The notes under the pieces were generated by a model. It worked only from the letters and a program-made list of their open reading frames with translations. It did not search any database and was not told the DNA's origin. Made by a program: the position numbers and the translations under genes. This document shows, in pieces, positions 3,818 through 11,865 of a stretch of DNA of 64,000 bases. Origin of the DNA: Cytophagaceae bacterium (lineage in GTDB: Bacteria; Bacteroidota; Bacteroidia; Cytophagales; Flexibacteraceae); contig JAIXYP010000069.1 of the NCBI GenBank assembly GCA_027490155.1, positions 1-64,000 of the forward strand, written 5' to 3'. Every line of letters begins with the position of its first letter. Position 1 is the stretch's first letter.

Positions 3818-4375
3818 ATGAACAACCCACAAGTAGCCCACCGATACGCCAAATCCTTGCTAGATCTTGCTAAAGAGCTGGCATCGGTTGAGGGTGTGCG
3901 TGCAGATATGGCACTAGTAGCCGCTACTTCCGCCGAAAGCCGGGAACTGCGCCTCTTGTTCGCCAGCCCCATCGTGACCCCTCTCAAGAAGTTAGAGGTG
4001 TTCAAAGCCCTGTTTGGCGCCACCGTCAACAAGCTGACGACTACTTTTGTCGAGCTGCTTGGACATAAAGGCCGTATTGACCTTATGCTTGACATCGCTG
4101 GTGCGTTTGAGCAGCAATACAATGAACTCAACAACGTGGCTGTTGCCACGCTGACCACTGCCACCCCGATTGACGCAACACTACGTGCCCAATTCATGGC
4201 ACTTGTTGCGAAGGAGACTGGCAAAACCGCCACTCTGGTTGAGCAAGTGAACCCCGATGTCATCGGAGGATTTTTGCTCCAGATGGACAACCAGCAGATC
4301 GACAGCACCGTGAAAACACAGCTGGCGAACATGCGCCTAAAATTGATTGACAACACCTACATTTCAAAACTATAA
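3818..4375 (+). CDS. atpH: F0F1 ATP synthase subunit delta
   Basis: 185 residues, the OSCP/delta subunit connecting the b stalk to the top of the F1 head. The N-terminal helical-bundle signature [12 protein letters not shown] is clear (from residue 6), as is the C-terminal motif [18 protein letters not shown] (about residues 147-164). The length is normal. It sits between atpF and atpA, with only 2 bases between its stop and the atpA start, suggesting translational coupling. Confidence 0.95.
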
Positions 4376-6412: not shown

Positions 6413-7222
6413 ATGTTTTCAGGCATTATCAGGCGATCACCCACAGCAACAGAGGCATCAGCAGGTGTAGCCACTGACGTTTTTGGATCGTTGGACCCCA
6501 ATAACATCCCGGAGCACATTGCCGTCATCATGGATGGCAACGGGCGTTGGGCCAAGAAACAAGGGATGAGCAAACGTCTATTTGGCCATAACAACGCCAT
6601 TGAGGCTGTGCGGGCTTGTTCCGAAGGTTGTGCCGAGCTTGGTGTCAAATACTTGACACTGTATGCCTTCAGCACCGAAAACTGGGGCCGCCCCCAAGAG
6701 GAGGTTGATGGCCTGATGTCTTTGTTAGTCCATACCATCGCTGCAGAGACCCCGACCTTGAACAAAAATCAAATTCGGCTGACGACTATTGGCCATACAG
6801 CAGGTTTGCCTGTTGCTTGCCAAGCTGAGCTTGCCAAAGCCATGGAGGACACAGCTGCCAACACCAGGATGACCTTGGTTTTGGCCCTCAACTATAGCGG
6901 ACGTTGGGATATCACCCAAGCGATGGCCCAGATGGCTTCCAAAGTAGCTGCTGACGAGCTCAATCCCGCTGATATTACCAGTGAGATCATTAGTGCCCAC
7001 ATGAGTACAGCAAACATGCCTGACCCTGAGCTCTTGATCAGGACCAGTGGTGAGCTCCGGATTAGCAACTTTTTGCTCTGGCAACTAGCCTATACCGAAC
7101 TTTATATTACAGAGACCCTTTGGCCAGACTTCCGGAAGGAGGATCTGCATGCTGCATTGGCTGCCTACCAAATACGAGATCGGCGGTTCGGACGGGTACA
7201 GTCCACCGACCAAACGACTTGA
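6413..7222 (+). CDS. uppS: Isoprenyl (undecaprenyl) diphosphate synthase
   Basis: Cis-prenyltransferase that builds the C55 lipid carrier for peptidoglycan and other envelope polymers from farnesyl and isopentenyl diphosphate. From the ATG at 6413 it has 269 residues. The catalytic Asp41 lies in MDGNGRWAK. Further family motifs are LYAFSTENWGRP, LALNYSGRWD and the C-terminal PDPELLIRTSGELRISNF. A longer reading from a TTG at 6377 is possible, but the ATG gives a normal N-terminus. It precedes bamA, a common pairing in Bacteroidetes. Confidence 0.95.
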   Translation: MFSGIIRRSPTATEASAGVATDVFGSLDPNNIPEHIAVIMDGNGRWAKKQGMSKRLFGHNNAIEAVRACSEGCAELGVKYLTLYAFSTENWGRPQEEVDGLMSLLVHTIAAETPTLNKNQIRLTTIGHTAGLPVACQAELAKAMEDTAANTRMTLVLALNYSGRWDITQAMAQMASKVAADELNPADITSEIISAHMSTANMPDPELLIRTSGELRISNFLLWQLAYTELYITETLWPDFRKEDLHAALAAYQIRDRRFGRVQSTDQTT

Positions 7223-7317
7223 CCCTATTGACGTTTTTATCACCAAGCAGGGTGCCAATGCTCCGGACCTCTGCCAACTTAACAAGACCCTAACAACCGC
7301 ATTATCGCCCTTCTACA

Positions 7318-7325
7318 TACTTTTG
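7318..7325 (+). promoter_or_regulatory. Possible -7 box upstream of bamA
   Basis: TACTTTTG matches TAnnTTTG and lies 56 bases before the bamA ATG. The expected TTG at about -33 is not evident, so it may be weak or need an activator. Confidence 0.35.
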
Positions 7326-7381
7326 CGGTATTCAAGCTCGTTCCTGCCTATAACAACGCTGGGCGCGTAGCACTTCCATCC

Positions 7382-9905: not shown

Positions 9906-10514
9906 ATGCAGAGCCACATCACACGGGTTTTTAGGTTTACCATAGGCATTGTCCAGACTGCTAACTTCAAGGCTGCAGGCGCTGTGCTGCTTATGGCATT
10001 TTGGCTATTGGCTCCTACCCAGCTGATGGCCCAGAAGTTTGGCTATGTGGATACCAAGTTCGTCCTGAGCAAGATGCCTGAGTACAAAACTGCACAGGGC
10101 GAAATTGACAAAGTTTCTAGCCAATGGCAGTCCGAAATTGAAGCTAAATTTAAGGACGTGGATAAGCTCCGGAAGGAGTACCAGGCCGAGGAAATCCTCT
10201 TGACCGAGGACATGAAGAAAGAGCGCCTCGGCGTGATCGTCGAGAAGGAAAAGGTAGCGAAGGAGCAGCAAAAGAAGATCTTTGGGTTTGAAGGTCTGTT
10301 GTTCCTAAAAAGGCAAGAGCTCGTCAAACCCGTGCAAGACAAAGTCTATGAAGCTGTCGAAAAGGTCTGCAAACAGAAAAAGGTGGCCATCATGTTTGAC
10401 AAAAGTGGCGACCTCGTGATGCTCTATACCGACCCGAAGCACGACTACACTGACTACATCCTGGAAGAGCTAGGCCTAGGTGACAAAAACGATACCATCG
10501 ACAACAAAAAGTAG
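9906..10514 (+). CDS. Skp/OmpH-family periplasmic chaperone (first copy)
   Basis: 202 residues from the ATG at 9906, 4 bases after the bamA stop. An upstream in-frame start inside bamA is possible, but only this one places a signal peptide at the N-terminus (about residues 1-43, hydrophobic core AGAVLLMAFWLLAPTQLMAQ). The mature part begins KFGYVDTKFVLSKMPEY, the OmpH signature. It continues as a long charged helical hairpin that forms the prongs of the trimeric chaperone holding unfolded outer-membrane proteins. It is coupled to bamA and followed by a terminator. Confidence 0.9.
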   Translation: MQSHITRVFRFTIGIVQTANFKAAGAVLLMAFWLLAPTQLMAQKFGYVDTKFVLSKMPEYKTAQGEIDKVSSQWQSEIEAKFKDVDKLRKEYQAEEILLTEDMKKERLGVIVEKEKVAKEQQKKIFGFEGLLFLKRQELVKPVQDKVYEAVEKVCKQKKVAIMFDKSGDLVMLYTDPKHDYTDYILEELGLGDKNDTIDNKK

Positions 10515-10560
10515 GGTAGGGGATTAGTCCTCTGACTATGACTGAATAACATTACCGATA

Positions 10561-10582
10561 GGAGCTTTAGGGCTCCTTTTTT
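10561..10582 (+). terminator. Intrinsic terminator after bamA-skp
   Basis: GGAGC (10561-10565) pairs with GCTCC (10572-10576), followed by six T residues. It separates the bamA unit from the next small gene. Confidence 0.75.
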
Positions 10583-10646
10583 GTGATATCCCTTAGGGTC
10601 AAAATCAGCATTTGGAGACTATTTGAGCCGTTTTTTGGTCGATCAA

Positions 10647-10682
10647 CTACTAATTTTAGTAGGTTTTAGTAGATATCAGTAG
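10647..10682. repeat. 10-bp TAGTAG repeat array with inverted arm
   Basis: Three consecutive 10-base units, ATTTTAGTAG, GTTTTAGTAG and ATATCAGTAG (10653-10682), follow one another exactly. The first is also the right arm of a perfect inverted repeat (CTACTAA at 10647-10653, TTAGTAG at 10656-10662). One-helical-turn spacing places all copies on the same DNA face. The array ends 6 bases before the start codon of a winged-helix protein, so it resembles an operator for autoregulation (inference). Confidence 0.55.
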
Positions 10683-10688
10683 CTGGGT

Positions 10689-10973
10689 TTGGCGGGTAAG
10701 CGGCTAAACCAATCTACCTACCTCGAGAAACAAAAGACCAAGAAACTAGCCCAGTTTGAGGCCCTCATGACCAACCAAAATCTCAAAGAACGCCAAGCGG
10801 CACTAATCGCGAGCTGGCAGCGCAAACCGAAGGACTTTGTCAGTATCGAAAATCACCAGCGATACCATGGCCTGACTTATCAAACAGCGCGGACTGACCT
10901 CCTCAAACTCGTCGAGATGGGCCTAGCAAGGATGATCATGGCTGGTAAAAAGCAGCTCTATGAGCGGATATGA
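10689..10973 (+). CDS. Small winged-helix protein resembling the Fic C-terminal domain
   Basis: 94 residues from a TTG start, with a stop codon in frame just upstream. An ATG at residue 27 is the alternative start. The C-terminal half (NHQRYHGLTYQTARTDL then LVEMGL) closely resembles the winged-helix segment that ends many Bacteroidetes Fic proteins. The catalytic Fic core (HPFxxGNGR) is absent here and in the surrounding 1 kb. It may be a free-standing DNA-binding protein or the tail left by deletion of a fic gene. The TAGTAG repeats directly upstream favour a working regulator; the missing ATG favours a remnant. Confidence 0.5.
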   Translation: MAGKRLNQSTYLEKQKTKKLAQFEALMTNQNLKERQAALIASWQRKPKDFVSIENHQRYHGLTYQTARTDLLKLVEMGLARMIMAGKKQLYERI

Positions 10974-11184
10974 CCGATCTACTTAGCCTTAATGCCATGT
11001 TAAAGCATCTGCAGCGGAGGCCCTTTCGGTCTATCCAAGCCGATCTTGCCCACAGTTGGCGGCAGCATTGCTACTTTTTTGAACAGATTCATTATTATTG
11101 CACCGCAAATGCCCCGACAAGTATGGCGGCAGCAACGACGCAATGCCCCGATGGCAATCGCCATTGGTCCAATTACAACAAGAG

Positions 11185-11865
11185 ATGATAAAGAACCTGA
11201 TGGTTGCCCTTGCTATGGGTACCGCCCTGGCAGCAGCCACCACCACTACTTCGGTAGCACAAGCAGAAGAAAAACCAGCAACTACCCTTGCGGTTAATCC
11301 TGCCAACAATGGCCCCCTCAAGATCGGCTATACTTCTGTCTATTACATCCTGAGCGCCTCCCCTAGGGCTAAGGAGATCGAGAGTGACTTAAAGGCACGT
11401 AATACCCAACTCGAGAAAGAGCTTCAGAAAAAAATGGCCGACTTCGAAGAGAAGTACACTGGTTTCCAACGTGGACAAAACACCATGAGCGAAACCATTA
11501 AGGCTGATAAATACAACGAGCTCAAGAATCTGGAGAGCAGCATCAAGGAGTTCCAGAAGAACGCCGAGCAAGAAATGAGCACCAAACGTGAAGAGCTCGT
11601 AGCCCCAGAGATCGAAAAGATCACGAAGGCCATCAAAGAGGTCGCTTCAGAAAACAGCTACACCTACATCCTGAACGGTGACCCACAGATCATGATCTTC
11701 GGCGCTGATCAGTTTGATGTGACTGACCTTGTGTTCAAGAAACTAGGCATTGCTAAGCCAGTCCCTGGTGCTAACGCAGGTGGAACTGACAGCCCGGCAA
11801 AACCAGCCAATAAGCCAAGTACTTTCCCTAAAGGTGGTGGTGCCAAGAAGCCAGGTGCGAAATAG
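11185..11865 (+). CDS. Skp/OmpH-family periplasmic chaperone (second copy)
   Basis: 226 residues from the ATG at 11185, chosen because it puts a signal peptide first (MIKNLMVALAMGTALAAATT, cleavage likely near AQAEE). The OmpH start KIGYTSVYYILSASPRAKEI is followed by a long Lys/Glu coiled region (about 65-160) and a C-terminal domain. The tail is Pro/Gly/Lys-rich and low in complexity. Two consecutive Skp-like genes after bamA are common in Bacteroidetes. Here the pair is split by the Fic-like gene and a terminator. Confidence 0.85.
   Translation: MIKNLMVALAMGTALAAATTTTSVAQAEEKPATTLAVNPANNGPLKIGYTSVYYILSASPRAKEIESDLKARNTQLEKELQKKMADFEEKYTGFQRGQNTMSETIKADKYNELKNLESSIKEFQKNAEQEMSTKREELVAPEIEKITKAIKEVASENSYTYILNGDPQIMIFGADQFDVTDLVFKKLGIAKPVPGANAGGTDSPAKPANKPSTFPKGGGAKKPGAK

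What the first reader, a model, noticed from the sequence alone, without database searches (positions are those of the whole stretch)
10647..10973. Free-standing Fic-type winged helix behind a phased repeat array
A 94-residue protein matching only the C-terminal winged helix of Fic proteins is preceded by three exact 10-bp TAGTAG units, one doubled as an inverted repeat. Phased repeats at the start codon look like an autoregulatory operator. This suggests that the DNA-binding tail of a Fic protein has become a separate regulator, or that a fic gene was deleted and its operator remains.
Basis: partly seen in the sequence, partly recalled or inferred. Interest (0 to 1): 0.55.

Follow-up and report, generated by a model that had tools for sequence, protein, structure and literature searches.

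The report
Fic toxin's DNA-binding tail with operator
A bacterium has lost the enzyme part of a Fic defence toxin but kept the toxin's DNA-binding tail together with the DNA switch it probably bound, so this may be a toxin turned into a small regulator, though it could also be a recent ruin.

Summary
The ORF at 10689-10973 is the C-terminal winged helix (wHTH) of a SoFic-type Fic protein (PADLOC SoFic, profile 276-348 of 361, E 3.1e-4). The array before it is of the operator type found before intact genes of this group. A genome scan for the array alone hit a full-length Fic gene in a Pontiellaceae bacterium. Three further full-length genes with the same recognition helix (YQTARTD), found by protein, carry CTACTAAT/ATTAGTAG sites. 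Most genes with other helices carry other sites.

A sister species has the same operator and tail at the same place, between two ompH genes; in 8 of 8 other family genomes where the pair was found the gap is short and empty. Over 85 tail codons, window versus sister dN/dS is 0.072 at dS 0.50, close to the neighbouring ompH (0.049), so the tail has not drifted since the split. The sister copy, however, has no ordinary in-frame start. Best reading: a Fic toxin gene cut down to operator plus DNA-binding tail, probably kept as a small autorepressor. Main rival: two recent truncations. A second operator copy, without fic, precedes a phage neck gene in the same genome.

The parts
10645..10684 (+). 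Operator: outer inverted repeat AACTACTAAT-N20-ATCAGTAGCT holding CTACTAA and three TTAGTAG/TTAGTAG/TCAGTAG units at 10-bp steps
   Evidence: conserved in the sister species; same class of site before intact fic genes
10689..10973 (+). Free-standing Fic-tail protein, 94 aa, TTG start
   Evidence: 85 codons at dN/dS 0.072 against the sister
10689..10706 (+). Likely remnant of the old Fic N-terminus (TTG in the place of the old start codon, then A-G-K-R-L)
   Evidence: by-eye alignment with G001 and with the intact G348 gene
10707..10715 (+). Deletion joint; the catalytic body is missing here; G001 has 29 more bases
10716..10970 (+). Complete C-terminal helix plus wHTH of a SoFic-type Fic protein
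10875..10910 (+). Recognition helix TYQTARTDLLKL
   Evidence: goes with CTACTAAT sites in four intact genes
9906..10514 (+). ompH gene upstream (flank of the insertion)
11188..11865 (+). ompH gene downstream (flank of the insertion)

Best explanation
A class-II, SoFic-type Fic gene (an AMPylating toxin of anti-phage defence with a C-terminal wHTH) once sat between two ompH genes in this genus. Its wHTH bound CTACTAAT/TTAGTAG sites next to its own start codon and repressed it. An internal deletion removed the whole catalytic body and left the operator, the start-codon position, a few N-terminal codons and the complete DNA-binding tail. The tail is probably still made as a 94-aa protein that sits on its own operator, side by side on the 10-bp-phased repeats, as a small autorepressor. 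Shown by sequence: the homology, the operator class, the truncation and the coding constraint since the two species split. Inferred: DNA binding, repression, and that the product is still made.
For: Tail homology: PADLOC SoFic E 3.1e-4, alignments. Operator class: the array scan hit an intact Fic gene in Pontiellaceae; CTACTAA/TTAGTAG lies before 3 of 3 YQTARTD genes and 1 of 24 others in the set of 27, and before a fourth YQTARTD gene, G348; Fisher p 0.0014 with the pattern-found L061 left out and G348 added, 0.009 with both left out. Constraint: dN/dS 0.072, dS 0.50, changes at codon positions 2/3/22, while spacers that look unconstrained are 68-71% identical. Operator nearly unchanged between the species while its upstream flank has diverged. 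Same fragment at the same place in 2 of 2 genomes of the genus. Precedents: CccR autorepresses through its C-terminal HTH, and the isolated C-terminal half binds (PMC9755527, passages); BldC, 68 residues without a dimerization domain, oligomerizes head to tail on direct repeats (PMC5859096, abstract).
Against: The G001 copy has no ATG/GTG/TTG in the frame of the tail, and its N-terminal remnant is in another frame. TTG is a weak start. CccR needs its dimer for repression in the cell, and the Fic dimer region is gone here. Only two genomes carry the form; among 395 genomes of the phylum the other 8 strong matches are full-length. The window's right operator arm has two changes. The structure model was poor and gave no PDB match at E<=0.001.
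Confidence: 0.5

Rival explanations
1. Recent ruin: both species kept an intact, constrained SoFic-type gene until lately, and each then lost its catalytic body by its own deletion. Operator and tail are leftovers without present function.
For: The joints differ by 29 bases and weak similarity; G001 is out of frame and without a normal start; the low dN/dS would date from the intact gene. Another decayed tail of this kind exists: a 66-aa ORF in L122/L123 that begins near the recognition helix.
Against: It needs two late, separate deletions that both spare the operator, the start region and the whole wHTH. Seven amino-acid changes at dS 0.50 leave little time for drift, by my estimate about a tenth of the divergence. 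AA(A/G)CGGCTAA next to the joint is common to both.
Confidence: 0.37
2. Dead relic since before the two species split, drifting freely.
For: The catalytic body is gone; no curated family reaches its cut-off; G001 is not in frame.
Against: dN/dS 0.072 at dS 0.50; 22 of 27 changes at third positions (binomial p 3.8e-7 against one third); no indel within the 85 codons.
Confidence: 0.05
3. The array is not a fic operator but a dispersed element (mobile or phage-linked) that lies beside a Fic tail by chance.
For: A second copy sits in a phage-gene contig of the same genome without any fic gene.
Against: The same class of site lies at the start codon of intact fic genes from other families, and goes with the helix type.
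Confidence: 0.05

Closest known systems
SoFic (class-II Fic AMPylase with C-terminal wHTH; anti-phage defence)
   Same: C-terminal wHTH; PADLOC SoFic profile matches the tail. Full-length relatives with the same helix hit the same profile at E 1e-43 to 1e-51 (three tested).
   Different: The window protein has no Fic domain and no Fic motif. The 440-aa group is itself only distantly related to the solved Shewanella SoFic (phmmer E about 1e-15 to 1e-13 for L079).
CccR (Fic protein of Yersinia pseudotuberculosis, autorepressor)
   Same: Operator of two 10-bp inverted repeats far apart (26 bp there, 20 bp here) near its own start; binding by the C-terminal half alone (PMC9755527, passages).
   Different: CccR keeps its Fic domain and needs the dimer to repress; here there are extra units in 10-bp phase and no Fic domain.
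BldC
   Same: A very small DNA-binding protein without a dimerization domain that oligomerizes on direct repeats (PMC5859096, abstract).
   Different: MerR-like, not a Fic tail; a resemblance in the proposed way of working only.

Membership tests
SoFic / class-II Fic protein | Fic domain with HPFx[D/E]GN | tested here: not met
   Absent from the 94-aa ORF; Pfam reports no Fic domain in it
SoFic / class-II Fic protein | N-terminal inhibitory motif ([ST]xxxE[GN]) | tested here: not met
   Absent in the ORF by reading; SSQLEG is present in the intact relative L079; the motif itself is recalled
SoFic / class-II Fic protein | C-terminal wHTH | tested here: met
Autorepressed Fic gene (CccR-like) | Inverted-repeat operator at its own start | tested here: met
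   (by sequence)
Autorepressed Fic gene (CccR-like) | Protein binds the operator and represses | not testable with these tools
   needs gel shift and reporter
Dead pseudogene | Neutral drift since the species split | tested here: not met
   dN/dS 0.072, codon positions 2/3/22
Functional small protein | Translatable frame conserved in relatives | tested here: inconclusive
   In frame from TTG in the window; no ATG/GTG/TTG in frame in G001, a MAG

The most novel reading that the evidence does not exclude
A defence toxin has been domesticated into a repressor. The 94-aa Fic tail is kept by selection without its enzyme and acts in trans: the nearly identical operator before the neck-protein gene of a phage-gene contig in the same genome (G000:C13:3851-3892) is its second target. 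The cell would then use the toxin's old DNA-reading head to hold down a phage virion gene, or the phage would have taken up the operator to sense or soak up SoFic-type regulators.
Probability: 0.12. Interest if true: 0.75.

Novelty: new variant of a known kind. Interest (0 to 1): 0.47.

Why it matters
How SoFic-type toxins are kept silent is largely open. The loci here suggest a simple rule that can be tested in many genomes at once: such genes carry an operator at their own start whose letters follow the recognition helix (YQTARTD with CTACTAAT, SNQTAR with TTCC[TA]AAT, and so on). That makes the autorepressor model predictive. The window case would show that the regulator half can outlive the toxin half.

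Tried and rejected
Mobile-element or phage reading of the array: considered after the copy in the phage-gene contig turned up, and largely dropped when the array scan hit an intact fic gene. A CRISPR-repeat reading came to mind because GTTTCAATCC follows the phage copy; at the mismatch levels searched, the genome shows no cluster of further copies.

Chance hits of the array pattern, read and set aside: L055, inside a long ORF, and L059, inside a small ORF of a viral contig.

The 72-aa ORF 10970-11188 overlaps the tail's stop codon; G001 has a stop in it and no family matched it.

Phage neck-gene relatives, to learn whether a fic gene once sat at the phage site: 15 of 148 genomes matched, the window's own among them; no ORF listed in those 15 loci bears the Fic motif; no relative in viral contigs. 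Uninformative. The other 5 of 8 proteins or searches around the phage contig were only those.

Structure: AlphaFold with two sequences gave pLDDT 71 with an over-long first helix; Foldseek gave no PDB match at E<=0.001. No weight is put on it. Rfam: 0 matches in 10400-11300. Single-strand folding of the array: z -1.5 in the window as DNA, -3.2 for the phage copy as RNA; not pursued.

Rows dropped before the counts: L098 (script did not find the Fic motif; helix SKETARTD), L091, L084/L086 (split gene, read separately) and the Fic genes of other C-terminal types.

Literature: (0 papers); only listings were seen except for the four papers named in the report.

Full report
WHAT IS THERE. The window lies in a 4-Mb genome of 69 contigs (G000, contig C25). 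Between two ompH genes (9906-10514 and 11188-11865) stand a 40-bp repeat array (10645-10684) and, six bases after its last TAG, a 94-aa ORF that starts with TTG (10689-10973). The array holds TTAGTAG, TTAGTAG and TCAGTAG at 10-bp steps, an inverted CTACTAA before the first unit, and an outer inverted repeat AACTACTAAT-N20-ATCAGTAGCT. Three phased AGTAG (or CTACT) units occur once in the window and never in 300 dinucleotide shuffles of it.

THE PROTEIN. Pfam and NCBIfam do not name it. PADLOC's SoFic profile matches residues 14-90 at its C-terminal end (E 3.1e-4). A search of 59 related genomes matched in four: the window's own, the sister copy (90% identity) and two full-length Fic proteins of the same order. 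With an alignment of ten tails, 395 genomes of the phylum gave nine matches below E 1e-17: eight in frames of 434-506 aa and the window's as the only free-standing one (the window's own tail and those of G228 and G339 were in the alignment). Weaker matches in short frames exist there (for instance L104, L110, L113) and were not read.

THE ARRAY IS A FIC OPERATOR. I first scanned the genome collection (84,980 species) for the array alone, CTACTAANTTTAGTAGNNTTTAGTA. Two contigs matched: the sister's, and one of a Pontiellaceae bacterium. In the latter, array copies fill the gap before a Fic gene (451 aa from TTG, 447 aa from ATG) with HPFVDGNG and the tail helix VYQTARTDL. I then read the upstream regions of Fic genes found by protein alone. 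L079 (AYQTARTD) has CTACTAATTTTAGTAAAATTAGTAG and further TTAGTA units running up to the ATG; L100 (TYQTARTD) has CTACTAATTTGACATCAATTAGTAG. With that rule in hand I looked at G348, whose gene is split over two contigs: the C-half (L084) reads TYQTARTDL and the N-half (L086) has AACTACTAATTTTGAACGTATTAGTAGTTGGT directly before ATG. Genes with other helices have other sites in the same place, read by eye: SNQTAR, TTCC[TA]AAT, with TTAGGA units 10 bp apart in L006 and L080; SYGTARAD, CTAACAAT; AYATARAD, CTATCAAT; RQTASK, GTTAAAT; SYNTARKD, AACTCAAT; ANFTAR, TTGCTAAT. The best inverted repeat in the 130 bases before the start beats 200 shuffles at p<=0.05 in 19 of 27 genes. The eight that do not are L006, L080, L087, L088, L094, L099, L151 and L156. 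The 27 are not independent (L152/L154 and L153/L155 look alike), L151 and L156 appear to have misjudged starts, and in the SN[FY]TAR genes the repeat could be a terminator. CTACTAA/TTAGTAG occurs in 3 of 3 YQTARTD genes of that set, one of them (L061) found through the pattern, and in 1 of 24 others (L095). With L061 left out and G348 added, Fisher p is 0.0014; with both out, 0.009. The numbers of YQTARTD genes are small.

WHAT IS KNOWN OF SUCH OPERATORS. CccR, a Fic protein of Yersinia pseudotuberculosis, represses its own gene through its C-terminal HTH. Its footprint is two 10-bp inverted repeats 26 bp apart, its C-terminal fragment binds alone (KD 6.1 against 2.6 micromolar), and repression in the cell needs the dimer (PMC9755527, passages). 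The outer repeat here, 10-bp arms 20 bp apart, has the same form. The CbFic2 paper of 2023 says that DNA binding by SoFic had not been shown (PMC10628234, passages). Sofic of E. coli is toxic, its C-terminal domain matters for toxicity, and a 47-residue antitoxin gene lies downstream (PMC12249575, first of four parts and passages). My five searches of this library (listings) showed no report of helix-matched, phased operators for SoFic-type genes; they cannot prove that there is none.

HOW THE TAIL CAME TO STAND ALONE. In 8 of 8 other family genomes in which the second ompH was found, the first ompH ends about 30-165 bases before it (starts judged by eye; for L075 the first ompH was recognised by its C-terminal end). 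A ninth genome, G007, gave no match. In the window the gap is 673 bases. The fic gene was therefore an insertion in this genus. In G001 the array is followed by AGTAGTTGGAG-ATT-TCG-GAC-CCC-AAA-CGG-CTA, in G348 by AGTAGTTGGT-ATG-AAG-AAG-CCC, and in the window by AGTAGCTGGGT-TTG-GCG-GGT-AAG-CGG-CTA. By this alignment, made by eye, the window's TTG stands where the old start codon was, and M-x-x-P-K-R-L is the old N-terminus (intact relatives with this helix begin MxxP). The catalytic body is gone in both. The joint is poorly conserved; AA(A/G)CGGCTAA next to it is common to both, and G001 has 29 more bases after it. One shared deletion is the simpler reading; two separate ones are not excluded.

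IS IT ALIVE? Over 85 aligned codons of the tail the two species differ at 2, 3 and 22 first, second and third positions; dS is 0.50 and dN/dS 0.072. Neighbours: atpA 0.019 at dS 0.284, uppS 0.052 at 0.60, bamA 0.009 at 0.475, ompH1 0.049 at 0.49, ompH2 0.044 at 0.151. Spacers that look unconstrained are 68-71% identical, though other spacers here are much more conserved. A gene dead since the split is excluded for practical purposes. What stays open is whether it is a kept small protein or two genes that were intact until recently. Against life in G001: no ATG, GTG or TTG in the tail's frame, and its N-terminal remnant is in another frame. G001 is a MAG of 390 contigs, so an error is possible but not shown. 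In the window the frame is whole from TTG to stop.

A SECOND OPERATOR. The same genome has one more copy, G000:C13:3851-3892, with a perfect outer repeat, in a 6.2-kb contig of phage genes (portal and head proteins, tail-completion/neck protein; 'Mu-like' is my recall). It lies just before the neck-protein gene, with no fic gene in the contig. In the whole genome the only other match to the tail protein was marginal (E 0.14), and the two other Fic proteins have other tails, so the window protein is the only known candidate to bind there. That could be a trans target, a remnant of a phage-borne fic cassette, or a decoy; nothing here decides between them.

VERDICT. My best reading is a kept small autorepressor (0.5), with recent double truncation as the main rival (0.37).

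Noticed in passing
L051 (G000:C13) 3851-3892: A second, perfect copy of the operator before a phage neck-protein gene, with no fic gene in the contig.
   Followed up: partly
L053 (G000:C36), L085 and L037 upstream regions: Fic genes of another C-terminal type (helix ..DTALRDI..) also have GCATAATTTGCGG- or GCAAAATTTGCGG-like inverted repeats near the start, so self-operators may be wider than the SoFic type.
   Followed up: no
L122 and L123 2995-3195: In two viral contigs the same stretch holds a 66-aa ORF beginning near the Fic recognition helix (ISYQTARTDLLKL), probably a dead Fic tail.
   Followed up: partly
window 10974-11187 and 7201-7381: Two spacers before ompH2 and bamA are about 93-98% identical between the two species, more than the coding genes beside them, which suggests conserved leader or promoter elements.
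   Followed up: no
L147 (MT840011.1): A phage-labelled human-gut scaffold carries an intact 435-aa Fic gene of this group with phased TTGCAAG/TAGCAAG units and a perfect inverted repeat before it.
   Followed up: partly
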